Shown: one piece after another, positions 10,842 to 26,562 of the stretch | How positions within the stretch are numbered: the stretch's first letter is position 1 | How the letters are laid out: the number at the start of each line of letters is the position of its first letter | NCBI RefSeq assembly: GCF_028281565.1 | Contig: NZ_JANQJQ010000030.1 | Coordinates: forward strand, 124,001 to 188,000 | Direction: 5' to 3' | DNA length: 64,000 bases | Origin: Seonamhaeicola sp. | Lineage (GTDB): Bacteria; Bacteroidota; Bacteroidia; Flavobacteriales; Flavobacteriaceae | Translations under genes and position numbers: made by a program | Notes under the pieces: model-generated | What the model was told of the DNA's origin: nothing | What the model saw: only the letters and a program-made list of their open reading frames with translations | Databases searched by the model: none

Positions 10842-12134
10842 TTAGTTCAGTAAAAATGATTTCAGATCCTCATAAGTAGAAATAACAACCGATACCTTTT
10901 CTTTACCCATGACTTCCTGAATTTGCTCCGGTAACGGCTGTTCTTTTTTGATAACTTCTTCAACCACATCTAAAAACTTGGTGGGGTGAGCCGTTTCTAA
11001 AAACACGCAATGAGCCTCCGGGTTTTCTTTTAGATATTCCTGGCTTCCCAAATAGCCAACAGCACCATGTGGGTCCGCTACATAGTTAAATTCATTATGC
11101 ATCTCTAACATAGCTTCTTTGGTCTCATCGTCTGTAAAGCTGTATGAAGACACATTTTTCTTTAGATTGTCGAATTGATTCTTGTAAATCTCCTGGATAC
11201 GAATAAAGTTACTGGGAGCGCCTACATCCATAGCATTACTTATAGTTTGAATAGATGGCTTTGGTTCGTATAATTGAGACTGCAAATAACGTGTTACCAC
11301 GTTGTTTACATTGTTTGAAGCCACAAAATGCTTTATAGGCAAGCCCAATTGTTGCGCCATCATTCCGGCACAAATGTTTCCAAAGTTTCCACTTGGCACG
11401 GAGAAAACTATATTATCGTACTTTTTATGAAGTTGCTTGTAAGCAAACATAAAGTAGAACAATTGCGGTAACCATCGTGCCACATTGATAGAGTTGGCAG
11501 ACGTTAACTGCATTTGGTTAGTCAGGTCTTCATCCAAAAAAGTGGTTTTGACCATGGCCTGACAATCGTCAAAAGTACCATTAACCTCTAAGGCCTTAAT
11601 ATTTTGTCCTAATGTAGTTAACTGCTTTTCCTGAATATCACTCACTTTTCCGCTAGGGTAGAGTATAACCACGTTTACGCCTTTTACTCCTAGAAATCCA
11701 TTCGCAACCGCACCGCCGGTATCTCCGGAGGTAGCAACTAATACGGTGACTTCATTGTCGTTATCCTTGTTGAAATACCCTAAACAGCGCGCCATGAAAC
11801 GAGCTCCTACGTCTTTAAAAGCCATCGTTGGCCCATGAAACAGTTCTAAAGTCGAAATGTTTTCATTAAGTTGTACTACAGGAAAATCAAATGACAGCGT
11901 TTCTTCAACAATGGTCTTTAAAACCGCTTCGGGAATTTCTGGAGACACAAATTGTTTAATGGCTTCAAAAGCGATTTCGGTGTTTGATAAACTATCAATA
12001 TTCTTAAAGAAATCTGCATTTAAAGGTGTAATACTTTCCGGAAAGTACAAGCCTTTATCCGGGGCTAATCCTTTTACAACAGCATTCTCAAACGTTGAAT
12101 CCGGGGCTTGTTTGTTTAGAGAGTAGTAATTCAT
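10842..12134 (-). CDS. thrC: Threonine synthase
   Basis: A 430-residue PLP enzyme. The cofactor lysine is K107 in the block HGPTMAFKDVG, and the glycine-rich phosphate loop is SGDTGGAVANG. It converts O-phosphohomoserine to threonine, the last step of the pathway. It is the last gene of the operon thrA-thrB-(four-helix-bundle)-thrC. Its start is 13 bases after the left heptad-repeat arm, so its translation initiation region lies next to that structure. Confidence 0.95.
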   Translation of the reverse strand: MNYYSLNKQAPDSTFENAVVKGLAPDKGLYFPESITPLNADFFKNIDSLSNTEIAFEAIKQFVSPEIPEAVLKTIVEETLSFDFPVVQLNENISTLELFHGPTMAFKDVGARFMARCLGYFNKDNDNEVTVLVATSGDTGGAVANGFLGVKGVNVVILYPSGKVSDIQEKQLTTLGQNIKALEVNGTFDDCQAMVKTTFLDEDLTNQMQLTSANSINVARWLPQLFYFMFAYKQLHKKYDNIVFSVPSGNFGNICAGMMAQQLGLPIKHFVASNNVNNVVTRYLQSQLYEPKPSIQTISNAMDVGAPSNFIRIQEIYKNQFDNLKKNVSSYSFTDDETKEAMLEMHNEFNYVADPHGAVGYLGSQEYLKENPEAHCVFLETAHPTKFLDVVEEVIKKEQPLPEQIQEVMGKEKVSVVISTYEDLKSFLLN

Positions 12135-12148
12135 TGGTTTTATTTTAT

Positions 12149-12173
12149 GACCATTGACCGAGGACCGAAGACC
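12149..12173 (+). repeat. Left arm of heptad inverted repeat (GACC core), thrC side
   Basis: Four GACC tetramers start at 12149, 12156, 12163 and 12170, an exact 7-base phase, with three variable bases between cores. The inverse complement of the arrangement, GGTC every 7 bases, is found at 12568-12592 on the other side of the four-helix-bundle gene. Confidence 0.85.
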
Positions 12174-12223
12174 AAAGAAGGAACATAGCCCAATGGTTTT
12201 ATAATTGTTATTTTATGTTTTTT

Positions 12224-12580
12224 CTAAATCATGTTCATTAGACTAAAAGACTCATTGTAAAATCTGAAAAACTCGTCTTTAGATATATAGTTTCTTTTTT
12301 GTGCTTTGAATAGACAGGTTACAACTTCGGCTAATGAACGGATGGCATACCCTATAAATTTCTTTTGCTCAGGGTTCGATTGGCCAATTGAGCCTTCAGA
12401 TATATTTAGAGCGACGGAATCAGAAGCTTTCCTTATTTGACTGGATAAATTGAACTTTTCCTTATCGGGGAAAGAATCTGCCATTTTATCAATCTCCTCT
12501 CCAAAGTCCATCGCTTTTTGCCAAATTGTGAGTTTCTCAAACTTAAACTTTCCAATTTTATCATTTTGGTCTTTGGTCAT
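12224..12580 (-). CDS. Four-helix-bundle protein (S23/23S rRNA intervening-sequence family)
   Basis: A 118-residue all-helical protein of the S23/IVP family. It shows the typical N-terminal FEKLTIWQKAMDF, the central SSQIRKASDSVALNISEG and the later RSLAEVVTCLFKAQ. In Salmonella, Leptospira and others this family is encoded inside 23S rRNA intervening sequences. Related Avd proteins serve diversity-generating retroelements. No rRNA or reverse transcriptase is here. The gene interrupts the thr operon between thrB and thrC. Its first codons, Met-Thr-Lys-Asp-Gln, are made from the heptad repeat itself, so it looks like part of a repeat-bounded cassette. Its molecular function is unknown. Confidence 0.85.
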   Translation of the reverse strand: MTKDQNDKIGKFKFEKLTIWQKAMDFGEEIDKMADSFPDKEKFNLSSQIRKASDSVALNISEGSIGQSNPEQKKFIGYAIRSLAEVVTCLFKAQKRNYISKDEFFRFYNESFSLMNMI

Positions 12581-12592
12581 AGGTCTTTGGTC
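12568..12592 (+). repeat. Right arm of heptad inverted repeat (GGTC core), thrB side
   Basis: GGTC tetramers start at 12568, 12575, 12582 and 12589, an exact 7-base phase. The arm overlaps the ATG (12578-12580, minus) and first codons of the four-helix-bundle gene. The tandem units have the form TTGGTCN. The arm can pair with 12149-12173 in the transcript. Confidence 0.85.
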
Positions 12593-12594
12593 CT

Positions 12595-13515
12595 TTAAAG
12601 AATTTTAATTCCTTGAGTATTAATTTTTGATACATGCATATCGAATTCAATACCAGTCTTAGAATATATTTTTTCTATAGCATCTTTCACATCTATAGCA
12701 GTTTCTTCTCCTTTACTTAATGAAAAAATTGAAGGTCCCGAGCCTGAAATTCCGGAACCTAAGGCACCGGCATCAATAGCAGCTTTGGTTACGTCATCAA
12801 AGTACGGAATTAACCTGCTTCTATGGGGTTCTACTATTACATCATGCAAAGACTTTTTAATAACTTCAAAATCACCGGTATGCAAGCCATGGACTAAACT
12901 TCCAAAATTGGCCCATTGGGTAATAGCATCTTCAAGTGCTACTTCTTTTGGTAAAAGGGCTCTTGATTCAGCGGTTTTTATTTCGATCTGAGGATGAATA
13001 ATCGTAGCATATAAATCATCAGGAGCAGGGATTTCTAAAATCTCCAACGGTGAGACGCTTTTTACCAATGCAAAACCTCCAAAGATAGCCGGGGCCAAAT
13101 TATCGGCATGTTCACATTTACTGGCTAAAGCCTCACCTTTAATAGCAAATTCTGTTAATTGGGTTTTGGTAAAGGGCCTGCCTAAAAGCTCATTCATACC
13201 AAAAACACTGCCAACGGCACTGGCTGCACTACTACCAATACCACTGCCCGGTTTAATCTTTTTATAGATCTCAATCTCGAAACCAAAATCCACGTCAATA
13301 GCATCATACATGGCTAAAGCCGATACTCCGGAAACATTTTTTTCGGTTTCATATGGCAAATCAAAACCTTCAATATGAGTGATACGAATCCCTTTTTTAT
13401 CGGTCTTTCTAATCACCATCTCATCTCCAACACTATCGAGGCAAAACCCCATAACGTCAAATCCGCAGGATACATTGGCGACGGTAGCCGGAGAAAATAG
13501 TCTTATTTCGTTCAT
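12595..13515 (-). CDS. thrB: Homoserine kinase
   Basis: A GHMP kinase of 306 residues from the chosen start. The ATP loop GSGIGSSAASAVG and the N-terminal SPATVANVSCGFD motif are intact, as is the C-terminal GSGISGSGPSIF. It phosphorylates homoserine for threonine synthase. The open frame extends to 13581, but the extra 22 residues (ELHEESSCFCSS...) do not belong to the family, and the ATG at 13515 gives the usual length. The gap to thrA holds a second heptad inverted repeat. Confidence 0.95.
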   Translation of the reverse strand: MNEIRLFSPATVANVSCGFDVMGFCLDSVGDEMVIRKTDKKGIRITHIEGFDLPYETEKNVSGVSALAMYDAIDVDFGFEIEIYKKIKPGSGIGSSAASAVGSVFGMNELLGRPFTKTQLTEFAIKGEALASKCEHADNLAPAIFGGFALVKSVSPLEILEIPAPDDLYATIIHPQIEIKTAESRALLPKEVALEDAITQWANFGSLVHGLHTGDFEVIKKSLHDVIVEPHRSRLIPYFDDVTKAAIDAGALGSGISGSGPSIFSLSKGEETAIDVKDAIEKIYSKTGIEFDMHVSKINTQGIKIL

Positions 13516-13589
13516 TTTTTCTATTAAATAGTTCTCGGCCGCACTAGAGCAAAAACAAGAACTTTCTTCGTGTAATTCCATTTTTTCAT

Positions 13590-13667
13590 AGAAAAAAGAA
13601 AATAGATAAAAGAGAAAAGACTTTTTGGTGGCCGTCTTTATTCTTGTTTCTATATTCTTGTGTCTTT
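13590..13667. repeat. Heptad inverted repeat in the thrA-thrB gap (AGA/TCT core)
   Basis: AGA trinucleotides recur at 13590, 13597, 13604, 13611 and 13618. After a short spacer, TCT recurs at 13635, 13642, 13649, 13656 and 13663. Both arms keep an exact 7-base phase and are inverted relative to each other. The AT-rich core makes this less specific than the GGTC element, but the phasing is complete over five units per arm. Confidence 0.7.
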
Positions 13668-23335: not shown

Positions 23336-23342
23336 ATTTACT

Positions 23343-23414
23343 CAGTATTCAGTATTCAGTTGGCAGTACGCAGTTCAGTAACGATAATGACTGAAAACTG
23401 AGTACAGTTGACCG
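23343..23414. repeat. Heptad inverted repeat (CAGT/ACTG core)
   Basis: CAGT recurs at 23343, 23350, 23357, 23364 and 23371 in exact 7-base phase, then at 23376. After a short loop, ACTG occurs at 23390 and 23397, with variants ACAG at 23404 and ACCG at 23411. The inverted arms can form a long hairpin. It fills the space between the SUI1 and 2OG-oxygenase genes, both leftward. Confidence 0.85.
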
Positions 23415-24558: not shown

Positions 24559-26562
24559 ATGGATAACAATTTTTCTTCAGACAATTTAAGTTTCGATATC
24601 GGTGATTTTAAGAGAAAATTACTGATCAGGCTTTATAAAGGCATGTTAAAACCCAGGCTGATAGAGGAGAAGATGCTGGTGTTGCTTCGCCAGGGAAAAA
24701 TAAGCAAATGGTTCTCTGGTATTGGACAGGAAGCTATTGCCGTTGGTGTCACTATGGCCTTAAAAAATGATGAATACATTTTACCTATGCACCGGAATTT
24801 AGGTGTTTTTACTACCAGGGGCATTCCGTTATACAGACTATTTAGTCAGTGGCAGGGAAAAGCATCAGGTTTTACTAATGGGCGTGACAGATCATTTCAC
24901 TTTGGAACACAGCAGTATAACATTGTTGGCATGATATCGCATTTAGGGCCGCAGCTTGGTGTTGCCGATGGCATTGCGCTCGCCAGTAAATTAAAACAAA
25001 CGGATCAGGTTACAGCTGTTTTTACAGGCGAGGGCGGTACCAGTGAAGGCGATTTTCATGAAGCTTTAAACGTGGCTTCGGTATGGCAATTACCGGTTAT
25101 ATTTTGTGTTGAAAATAATGGTTATGGCCTTTCAACACCAACCAATGAGCAATACCGTTGCAACAATATAGCCGACAGAGGTGCAGGCTATGGCATGGAA
25201 TCGCATATAGTGGATGGAAATAATATTATTGAAGTTTATAAAACCGTTAAAAAAGTGGCTGATAGTATTCGTAAAGATCCACATCCGGTTTTGTTGGAAT
25301 TCAAAACATTTAGAATGCGAGGCCATGAAGAGGCGAGTGGCACCAAATATGTACCTGCGGAATTATTAGAAGCATGGGCTAAAAAAGACCCTGTGGAGAA
25401 CTATCTGAGTTTCCTGAGATCTGAGCATATTATTGATGACGCTTTTGATGCCAAATTAAAAGAAGACATTAATGCTGAAATCAATGAACATCTGGAGGTA
25501 GTTTTCAACGAGGAAGCTATTATTTCAGATGAAACTAATGAATTAAATGATGTTTTTGAACCATTTGTATATCAGGAAGTTAAAAACGAATCAAGTTTAA
25601 AAGAGATTCGATTGGTTGATGCTGTTTCCGAGGCCTTAAAACAAAGCATGGAGCGCTATGATGACCTTGTTATTATGGGGCAGGATATTGCGGCGTACGG
25701 AGGTGTTTTTAAAATCACGGAGGGCTTTGTAGCTCAGTTTGGAAAAGAACGGGTACGTAACACACCCATTTGTGAATCGGCCATTATTGAAACGGCCATG
25801 GGATTGTCTATTGCCGGTATAAAAAGCGTTGTGGAATTGCAATTTGCAGATTTTATTAGTTCCGGATTTAATCCGGTGGTTAACTATTTAGCCAAATCTC
25901 ATTACAGATGGGAGCAAAATGCTGATGTGGTTTTGCGCATGCCTTGCGGAGGCGATGTTGGAGCAGGGCCATTCCACTCACAAACTAACGAAGCGTGGTT
26001 TACCAAAACCCCGGGTTTAAAAGTGGTGTATCCGGCATTTCCCTACGATGCAAAGGGCTTATTGGCAACTGCCATAAATGACCCTAATCCGGTATTATTT
26101 TTTGAACACAAAGCTTTATACAGAAGCATCCGCCAGGAAGTACCAACAGATTATTATACACTGCCTTTTGGAAAGGCTTCGGTTTTAAAAGAAGGAAACG
26201 ATATTACTGTCATTTCTTATGGTGCTGCAGTACATTGGGCACTGGAAACATTAGAAAAGTACCCTGATATGTCAGTTGATATGATCGATTTGAGAACCCT
26301 TCAGCCTTTAGATACCGAAACTATTTTTAATTCGGTAAAAAGAACCGGTAAAGCTATTATATTGCAGGAAGACACCTTGTTTGGAGGGGTTGCCAGTGAT
26401 ATTTCAGCTTTAATCACTGAGCATTGTTTTGAGTATTTAGATGCCCCGGTGAAGCGTGTTGCCAGTTTAGAAACGCCCGTTCCGTTTGCTAAACCATTAG
26501 AAAGTCAGTTTTTACCGAAAGACAGGTTTGAAACCGCTTTAAAAGCATTGCTGGCATATTAA
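24559..26562 (+). CDS. Fused alpha-beta E1 component of a 2-oxoacid (branched-chain type) dehydrogenase
   Basis: A 667-residue TPP enzyme. The alpha part (to about residue 335) carries the TPP/Mg motif GEGGTSEGDFHEALN...ENNGYG. The beta part (from about residue 350) starts EIRLVDAVSEALKQSM and includes GQDIAAYGGVFKITEG. The alpha-beta fusion is common in Bacteroidota. It decarboxylates branched-chain 2-oxoacids and passes the acyl group to an E2 component, which is not encoded here. It may supply primers for branched fatty acids. Confidence 0.9.
   Translation: MDNNFSSDNLSFDIGDFKRKLLIRLYKGMLKPRLIEEKMLVLLRQGKISKWFSGIGQEAIAVGVTMALKNDEYILPMHRNLGVFTTRGIPLYRLFSQWQGKASGFTNGRDRSFHFGTQQYNIVGMISHLGPQLGVADGIALASKLKQTDQVTAVFTGEGGTSEGDFHEALNVASVWQLPVIFCVENNGYGLSTPTNEQYRCNNIADRGAGYGMESHIVDGNNIIEVYKTVKKVADSIRKDPHPVLLEFKTFRMRGHEEASGTKYVPAELLEAWAKKDPVENYLSFLRSEHIIDDAFDAKLKEDINAEINEHLEVVFNEEAIISDETNELNDVFEPFVYQEVKNESSLKEIRLVDAVSEALKQSMERYDDLVIMGQDIAAYGGVFKITEGFVAQFGKERVRNTPICESAIIETAMGLSIAGIKSVVELQFADFISSGFNPVVNYLAKSHYRWEQNADVVLRMPCGGDVGAGPFHSQTNEAWFTKTPGLKVVYPAFPYDAKGLLATAINDPNPVLFFEHKALYRSIRQEVPTDYYTLPFGKASVLKEGNDITVISYGAAVHWALETLEKYPDMSVDMIDLRTLQPLDTETIFNSVKRTGKAIILQEDTLFGGVASDISALITEHCFEYLDAPVKRVASLETPVPFAKPLESQFLPKDRFETALKALLAY

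What the first reader, a model, noticed from the sequence alone, without database searches (positions are those of the whole stretch)
12135..12600. Four-helix-bundle (IVP-like) cassette bounded by 7-bp-phased inverted repeats inside the thr operon
Seen: GACC at 12149, 12156, 12163 and 12170, and GGTC at 12568, 12575, 12582 and 12589. Both arms hold an exact 7-base phase with three free bases per unit, and the arms are inverted. They enclose one gene of the S23/23S-rRNA-intervening-sequence family, and the right arm provides its ATG and first codons. Known: in 23S rRNA the same family is encoded by IVS elements whose ends pair with each other. Inference: this may be an IVS-like cassette that moved into a protein operon, whose mRNA end-pairing could be bound or processed by its own product or by RNase III.
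Basis: partly seen in the sequence, partly recalled or inferred. Interest (0 to 1): 0.78.

Follow-up and report, generated by a model that had tools for sequence, protein, structure and literature searches.

The report
Operon gene cassettes with 7-bp inverted arms
A small four-helix-bundle gene inside a threonine operon sits between two mirror-image arrays of 7-base repeats; the same arrangement, with a different repeat core in each cassette, surrounds many relatives of this gene in several bacterial phyla and looks like an undescribed kind of mobile cassette.

Summary
It is also general. In 81 IVP loci the best flank period is 7 on about 56 left and 55 right sides (about 9 expected). Arms of one cassette match each other in inverted orientation (0 of 10,000 permutations reach it), while the ~4-nt core differs between cassettes. 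A test calibrated on swapped flanks gives 77 of 189 loci at 7 bp and 24 of 189 at 8 bp (about 4 expected), in Bacteroidota, Cyanobacteria, Planctomycetota, Patescibacteria, Clostridia, Campylobacterota and others; 90 of 189 pass neither. In seven genomes of the genus the thr cassette is present in 3, cleanly absent in 3, and another insert lies there in 1. Gene-less versions occur, one in this operon. RNA pairing as the selected feature is weakened: spacers do not pair in register and G·U-type differences are not favoured. Best explanation: a mobile-element-like, IVS-related cassette whose ends are inverted arrays of a recognition motif that travels with the gene. What moves it is unknown. Published heptamer arrays fit, but no paper I found links heptamer arms to IVP genes outside rRNA.

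The parts
12135..12594 (-). IVP cassette between the thrB stop and the thrC ATG
   Evidence: absent in three genomes of the genus, where the two genes are 2-3 nt apart
12224..12580 (-). IVP / S23 / four-helix-bundle gene, 118 aa
   Evidence: PF05635 E 5e-30, TIGR02436 E 1.1e-26; AF2 mean pLDDT 91.4; Foldseek 2gsc TM 0.80, Avd 4dwl TM 0.72
12565..12592 (.). 5' arm in gene sense: four 7-bp units, core GACC; supplies the ATG and first codons
12149..12176 (.). 3' arm in gene sense: four 7-bp units, core GGTC, the inverse of the 5' arm
   Evidence: TRF reports 12156-12178
10842..12134 (-). thrC, threonine synthase
   Evidence: TIGR00260
12595..13581 (-). thrB, homoserine kinase
   Evidence: TIGR00191 and NF002288
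13668..16112 (-). thrA, bifunctional aspartate kinase / homoserine dehydrogenase
   Evidence: NF006959
13588..13665 (.). gene-less mini-element in the thrA-thrB spacer: AGANAAA-type array (13588-13621) and inverted TCTT-type array (13634-13665), 7-bp phase
   Evidence: fold z -3.8; spacer clean in 5 of 6 other genomes of the genus
23339..23405 (.). second gene-less mini-element: CAGT units at 7 bp, then inverted ACTG units

Best explanation
This is one copy of a widespread mobile-element-like cassette. Each cassette carries one IVP gene, whose product should be a toroidal pentamer like that of X. campestris (PMC4990558, passages), and is bounded by two inverted arrays of usually 4-5 units of 7 bp (a minority 8 bp). 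Each unit has a roughly 4-nt conserved core and a roughly 3-nt free spacer. The core is private to the cassette, the same in both arms, and carried along when gene and arms move together. Shown: the architecture, its generality, the match between own arms, presence/absence in operon spacers, gene-less versions, co-directional placement in operons, and purifying selection on the thr-site protein. Inferred: the arms are kept as a recognition motif (for the IVP ring or a partner) at both ends of a DNA element, rather than as an RNA stem; gene-less versions are deletion or non-autonomous derivatives; 23S rRNA IVS elements that encode S23p are relatives that landed in rRNA. The enzyme that moves the cassette is not known.
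For: Period 7 is best in 56.2 of 81 left and 55.1 of 81 right flanks, about 9 expected. Own arms match inverted: mean 4.32 vs 3.16, 0 of 10,000 permutations reach it, own arm ranks first in 29 of 81 and in the top five in 50 of 81; direct orientation shows no signal. Second set: 37 of 89 with both arms at 7 bp. Calibrated against swapped flanks: 7 bp 77 of 189, 8 bp 24 of 189, periods 5, 6, 9, 10 at 3, 7, 5, 8 of 189. Column conservation is correlated between the two arms (0.44 vs 0.09 swapped) and conserved columns agree across arms at 0.89 vs 0.58 swapped: a functional core rather than drifting slippage. Filled and empty sites at four IVP sites in seven genomes of the genus. At the fad site two IVPs only 44% identical sit in the same spacer with different cores. 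At different sites cores are shared above about 70% protein identity and rarely below. 5' arm G-rich in 86 of 102, 3' arm C-rich in 93 of 108; flanking genes both co-directional in 151 of 162. dN 0.08 with dS about 1-1.9 at the thr site.
Against: No transposase or other catalytic domain was found in the cassette; no target-site duplication seen by eye at the thr site. 90 of 189 loci pass neither the 7- nor the 8-bp test, and the loci include orthologous copies at one site, so they are not independent. 13% of control gene boundaries also reach the period-7 threshold. A few cassettes appear to have direct instead of inverted arms (one L010 copy, L029, L085). At the L006 site a stretch resembling the native spacer lies between the gene and the far 3' array. 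Neither core nor unit length is tied to protein phylogeny at depth, which argues against a fixed protein-motif code. The filled thr sites are scattered on the genus tree while IVP and thrC divergence are alike, so long residence with repeated clean loss is as possible as repeated gain. Gene-less arrays do not match the genome's own IVP cores significantly (117 of 2000 random sets do as well).
Confidence: 0.55

Rival explanations
1. RNA-level IVS-like element: in the operon mRNA the two arms pair into a long stem that exposes the gene in a loop, and RNase III or the IVP protein processes or protects it.
For: Own arms pair far better than swapped arms (-26.6 vs -11.1 kcal/mol, below the swap median in 117 of 125). 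Predicted folds of the cassette (z -2.0) and the mini-element (z -3.8) form core helices separated by internal loops. Flanking genes co-directional in 151 of 162. The arms are C-poor and G-poor respectively, so they can pair with each other better than with themselves. The Coxiella IVS is excised by RNase III (PMC4990558, passages).
Against: Unit-order permutation null (53 of 106, p 0.63). G·U-compatible differences are fewer than A·C ones (1 vs 7 columns, p 0.07; unit-level ratio 0.75, CI 0.62-0.90; 8-bp class 1 vs 2). Variable columns agree across arms no better than in swapped pairs (0.35 vs 0.33).
Confidence: 0.25
2. Autoregulation: the IVP pentamer wraps the 5' arm of its own mRNA as TRAP wraps its repeats, one 7-8 nt unit per subunit, and controls translation from the start codon just downstream.
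For: 4-5 units per arm is the usual count (4 is the minimum scored). The array ends a median 15 nt before the start codon (115 cassettes). The fold is that of 2gsc and Avd. Ring-wrapping by TRAP is recalled.
Against: It does not explain an equally conserved, inverted 3' arm or gene-less elements; cores are not tied to protein lineage below about 70% identity.
Confidence: 0.12
3. Neutral tandem repeats: 7-bp slippage arrays arise often in these genomes and merely accumulate near a tolerated gene.
For: Thirty-one intergenic non-IVP blocks in 1.16 Mb of the same genome; 13% of 543 control gene boundaries also reach the period-7 threshold.
Against: Arms match each other inverted and own-specific; the same columns are conserved in both arms; IVP flanks are at 52% and 60% against 13% for controls.
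Confidence: 0.05

Closest known systems
23S rRNA intervening sequences (IVS) with an S23p/IVP ORF (Coxiella, Leptospira)
   Same: Same protein family; ends that pair (recalled and PMC4990558); the Coxiella IVS has two or three tandem GACAGAT heptamers just upstream of the S23p start (PMC4990558, passages).
   Different: Here the element lies between protein-coding genes; excision from RNA is not shown; both arms of a cassette share a cassette-specific core.
Avd, accessory protein of diversity-generating retroelements
   Same: Same fold (4dwl TM 0.72/0.79, rmsd 1.9, but Foldseek E 0.63); PMC10053308 (passages) notes the PF05635-Avd resemblance.
   Different: The neighbours scanned here are thr genes; reverse transcriptase or template repeats were not searched for.
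Heptamer repeat arrays: GGGAATC (Xanthomonas), GGGGA(C/T)T (Nostoc), TAACTGA (Beggiatoaceae, Cyanobacteria, five Bacteroidetes)
   Same: Intergenic 7-bp arrays; in Xanthomonas 70-75 convergent close pairs per genome (PMC4692102, passages; PMC4679880, abstract and passages).
   Different: The word S23 has no hit in the first paper, and 23S, helix bundle and intervening have none in the second; here the arrays bound a gene cassette and differ in core from cassette to cassette.
MITE/transposase and REP/RAYT pairs (recalled)
   Same: Gene-bearing element plus gene-less versions with similar ends.
   Different: No transposase; ends are variable-core arrays of short units rather than a fixed terminal inverted repeat.

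Membership tests
PF05635 / TIGR02436 IVP four-helix-bundle family | profile match over the family cut-off | tested here: met
   104.3 bits vs 33.8; 93.2 vs 24
PF05635 / TIGR02436 IVP four-helix-bundle family | four-helix-bundle fold of 2gsc / 2rld | tested here: met
   AF2 mean pLDDT 91.4; TM 0.80 and 0.78
PF05635 / TIGR02436 IVP four-helix-bundle family | homopentameric torus | not testable with these tools
   only a monomer was modelled; pentamer of the X. campestris protein from PMC4990558 (passages)
23S rRNA IVS element | located in a 23S rRNA helix | tested here: not met
   lies between thrB and thrC
23S rRNA IVS element | inverted, mutually complementary ends | tested here: met
23S rRNA IVS element | excised from the transcript by RNase III | not testable with these tools
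   needs RNA-end mapping
Insertion sequence / MITE | transposase in the gene-bearing copy | tested here: not met
   the only ORF of 60 aa or more inside the cassette is the IVP gene
Insertion sequence / MITE | terminal inverted repeats | tested here: met
   inverted arrays at both ends, but with variable core and unit count
Insertion sequence / MITE | target-site duplication | tested here: inconclusive
   none obvious by eye between filled and empty thr sites; the flanks differ too much between species
Diversity-generating retroelement | reverse transcriptase with template and variable repeats nearby | not tested
   only the four ORFs at the site were scanned against families

The most novel reading that the evidence does not exclude
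IVP genes define a class of mobile element not previously recognised, found in many bacterial phyla. Its toroidal five-subunit protein recognises 4-5 iterated 7- or 8-bp units at both ends; the core turns over quickly but in concert in both arms. 23S rRNA IVS elements and the long-known heptanucleotide repeats of cyanobacteria and xanthomonads are its offshoots.
Probability: 0.35. Interest if true: 0.92.

Novelty: new variant of a known kind. Interest (0 to 1): 0.8.

Why it matters
It gives a protein family of unknown function (IVP/S23) a recurrent genetic companion, and so a testable substrate: its own 7-8 bp arms. It offers an origin for heptamer repeat arrays that two 2015 papers described without a known cause, and connects rRNA intervening sequences to elements in ordinary operons. 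Both arms sharing one core while the core differs between cassettes is an unusual evolutionary pattern that calls for a mechanism.

Tried and rejected
RNA stem as the selected feature: tested by unit-order permutation and by wobble bias; not supported. Unit length set by protein phylogeny: looked significant on the full tree (1 of 1000; nearest neighbours under 65% identity 0.75 vs 0.65, p 0.016, but 8-bp to 8-bp only p 0.125) and vanished after collapsing relatives at 65% identity (584 of 2000) and 55%. Core set by protein: rank correlation 0.17 over different-site pairs, sharing limited to pairs above about 70% identity. Gene-less arrays as trans-partners of the genome's own IVP cores: suggestive pairs, not significant (117 of 2000); that call also put the thrA-thrB mini-element outside its 31 intergenic blocks, so its coding/intergenic sorting is rough. 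A census of inverted pairs with a direct-orientation control did not separate mini-elements cleanly: at high scores direct pairs outnumber inverted ones (18 vs 2 at 0.84), because long perfect arrays score in both. Xanthomonas chromosomes and rRNA-borne IVS loci were not reached, so the links to GGGAATC and to the Coxiella IVS rest on papers. Foldseek gives Avd only at E 0.63 (probability 1.00), and the sequence-profile search of solved structures found only 2gsc and 2rld.

Rows dropped before counts: one search used 81 of 84 HMM hits (two short second domains, and one copy of the window protein); 4 of the 83 loci then held had no IVP, as expected of empty thr sites. Of the family matches (list itself cut) only those given loci plus the stretches were examined. 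One search used 89 of 90; three loci gave no ORF hit. One search used 189 of 192; 9 of its 30 new loci gave no new ORF hit, and L126 (Acidobacteriota), which has matching arms, is absent from its tally.

Full report
Observation. The neighbours are thrC, thrB and thrA, all on the same strand. The right arm lies 2 nt from the thrB stop codon and contains the start codon of the gene; the left arm lies 14 nt from the thrC start codon.

It is not a peculiarity of this site. The same genome has seven PF05635 genes. By eye their flanks carry short repeats with inverted cores: GACC here, CAGT in L002, GAAG in L005, AGA in L004, ATTA-type in L006. Within about 250 nt, four of the seven (L002, L003, L004, L006) have a clear period-7 maximum on both sides, L005 on one side with a tie on the other; L001 and L007 do not stand out at period 7.

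Statistics, first set. From 60 family-level genomes (45 with a match), further stretches and the genus search 83 loci were held; an HMM gave 84 hits, of which 81 unique were used. The best period among 4-12 is 7 in 56.2 of 81 left flanks and 55.1 of 81 right flanks (ties shared), against about 9 in shuffles. Both flanks reach 15/21 at period 7 in 31 of 81, and in at most 2 of 81 at any other period. The heptad profile of a cassette's left arm matches the reverse complement of its own right arm (mean 4.32) better than those of other cassettes (3.16); none of 10,000 permutations reaches the observed mean; the own arm ranks first in 29 of 81 and in the top five in 50 of 81. In direct orientation there is no signal.

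Statistics, second set. A genome-contig search with a different IVP returned 80 named loci, and plasmid records added cyanobacterial, Gemmatirosa and Azospirillum copies (20 of 36 plasmid hits were opened). Of 89 usable cassettes, 37 have both arms at period 7, 9 at period 8, none at other periods. A test calibrated on swapped flanks (98% threshold, so about 4 of 189 expected) gives 77 of 189 at period 7 and 24 of 189 at period 8, and 3, 7, 5 and 8 of 189 at periods 5, 6, 9 and 10. Seven- or eight-bp calls by group: Bacteroidota 63 of 139, Cyanobacteria 12 of 17, Patescibacteria 6 of 9, Planctomycetota 5 of 7, Deltaproteobacteria 4 of 5, Campylobacterota 2 of 4, Clostridia 2 of 2, Ignavibacteria 1 of 2, and one of one each for Azospirillum, Gemmatirosa, a Sumerlaeota and an unnamed bacterium. 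In all 99 of 189 pass one or the other and 90 pass neither; the loci include orthologous copies at one site, so they are not independent. At 543 control gene boundaries in the same loci the period-7 rate is 13%, against 52% and 60% for IVP flanks; 13% is itself above other periods, so arrays also occur away from IVP genes.

Anatomy of the arms. On average four of seven columns are fully conserved within the best four units. Arms usually hold 4-5 units; four is the minimum scored. Conserved columns agree across arms at 0.89 (swapped 0.58), the least conserved columns at 0.35 (swapped 0.33), and column conservation is correlated between the two arms (0.44 vs 0.09 swapped; also higher when matched for register score). 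This pattern is expected of a functional core with a free spacer, not of unconstrained slippage. The 5' arm is G-rich (86 of 102 arms with G>C) and the 3' arm C-rich (93 of 108). Both flanking genes point the same way as the IVP gene in 151 of 162 cassettes with two flanks called. The array ends a median 15 nt before the start codon.

Does the RNA pair? Own arms form better duplexes than swapped ones (-26.6 vs -11.1 kcal/mol; below the swap median in 117 of 125), and the predicted folds have core helices broken by internal loops. But any two inverted arrays with one core would do that. Two tests separate selection for pairing from selection for the motif. Permuting the order of units in one arm does not change the energy on average (actual order better in 53 of 106, p 0.63), so spacers are not kept in register. 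Where both arms are conserved but differ, G·U-compatible differences are not favoured (1 vs 7 columns, p 0.07; unit-level ratio 0.75, bootstrap CI 0.62-0.90; 8-bp class 1 vs 2). I therefore do not take an RNA stem to be what selection maintains, although a stem may form.

Presence and absence. In seven genomes of the genus (own included) the thrB-thrC spacer holds the cassette with GACC arms in three (G000, G061, G065), is clean with the genes 2-3 nt apart in three (G060, G063, G064), and holds another short insert in one (G062). In 28 other genera whose thrB lies beside thrC none has the gene there; in 11 of the 28 the two genes overlap and in 16 of the 28 they overlap or are within 1 nt. The IVP copies at this site are 84-87% identical over the domain with dN about 0.08 and dS about 1-1.9. 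Their nucleotide identity (0.80-0.83) is like that of thrC (0.79-0.82), while the filled genomes are scattered on the thrC+thrB tree. So either the cassette is old in the genus and was lost cleanly several times, or related copies were gained repeatedly; the data do not decide. At the fad site G000 and G065 carry IVPs that are only 44% identical, with different cores, in the same spacer, while four genomes are clean and one has another spacer. At ffh-folD, G000 and G065 carry cassettes with CAGT units; by eye G063 has a gene-less stretch with degenerate CAGT/ACTG units, and four genomes have TTAGAAG-type arrays (TTAAAAG in G060) next to a MITE-like sequence. At the L006 site only G000 has the gene; G063 has what looks by eye like a gene-less array pair, and five are clean.

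Gene-less versions. The thrA-thrB spacer of this same operon holds an inverted pair of AGANAAA-type arrays without a gene (13588-13665); the spacer is clean in five of the six other genomes, and G064 has a different insert. A second one lies at 23339-23405. In 1.164 Mb of this genome there are 66 seven-bp blocks of at least 23/28, of which 8 lie near IVP genes, 23 were sorted as inside long ORFs and 31 as other intergenic blocks with a G or C in the core (the sorting is rough, since the thrA-thrB element is not among the 31). Their resemblance to the genome's own IVP cores is not significant (117 of 2000 random sets do as well).

Core and protein. At different sites, cassettes share cores mainly when the proteins are about 70% identical or more (38% of 34 pairs at 70-80%, 3 of 3 above 80%, against 0.9% at baseline). 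Arms thus travel with the gene, and cores turn over quickly. Unit length is not tied to deep protein phylogeny once close relatives are collapsed.

Protein. The AF2 model of the window IVP has mean pLDDT 91.4. Foldseek finds XCC0516 (2gsc, TM 0.80), BT_0352 (2rld, 0.78) and, at E 0.63 but probability 1.00, Bordetella phage Avd (4dwl, TM 0.72/0.79), and DGR ribonucleoprotein chains (8ube, E 0.91). The X. campestris protein is a homopentameric torus according to PMC4990558 (passages). PMC10053308 (passages) notes the PF05635-Avd resemblance.

Literature. PMC4990558 (passages) reports two or three tandem GACAGAT heptamers upstream of S23p in the Coxiella 23S IVS. PMC4692102 (passages) describes GGGAATC arrays in Xanthomonas, many as convergent close pairs, and GGGGA(C/T)T in Nostoc, without a known function; PMC4679880 (abstract and passages) describes TAACTGA arrays. 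'S23' has no hit in the first; '23S', 'helix bundle' and 'intervening' have none in the second. The listings of eight library searches showed no paper that I recognised as linking heptamer arms to IVP genes outside rRNA; subscription papers are mostly not held. Passages of PMC8700078, PMC10910872 and PMC5524665 mention four-helix-bundle or IVP genes but no such repeats.

Conclusion. I file the gene as an IVP-family member and the cassette as a new variant related to rRNA IVS elements, not as an IVS proper (not in rRNA) nor as an insertion sequence (no transposase). The most likely reading is a mobile-element-like cassette whose ends are arrays of a recognition motif; the moving enzyme and the binding partner remain to be found.

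Noticed in passing
L090 (Picosynechococcus plasmid), L085 and L285 (Pseudanabaena, Anabaena plasmids): IVP genes sit inside CRISPR-Cas operons: between cas10 and cmr3, and between cas6 and cas4.
   Followed up: no
L308 (G000:C29, L006 site): A stretch resembling the native spacer of the other genomes lies between the IVP stop codon and a far 3' array, so the arrays enclose host-like DNA as well as the gene.
   Followed up: partly
L010 (one copy), L029, L085: Cassettes whose two arms appear to be in direct rather than inverted orientation.
   Followed up: no
G000:C17 about 88950 and 145331; C24 about 25927-26080: Long perfect heptamer arrays (TTCTAAC, AGTTCCG) and composite arrays away from the seven IVP genes.
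   Followed up: partly
L303, L306, L307 and, as a variant, L304 (ffh-folD spacers): A MITE-like sequence (GTCATGCTGAGCG-type) follows TTAGAAG-type arrays in four genomes of the genus; G062 has another short insert at thrB-thrC (L040).
   Followed up: no
window 13634-13665: The 14-bp period reported by TRF is two 7-bp units of the mini-element's second arm.
   Followed up: yes
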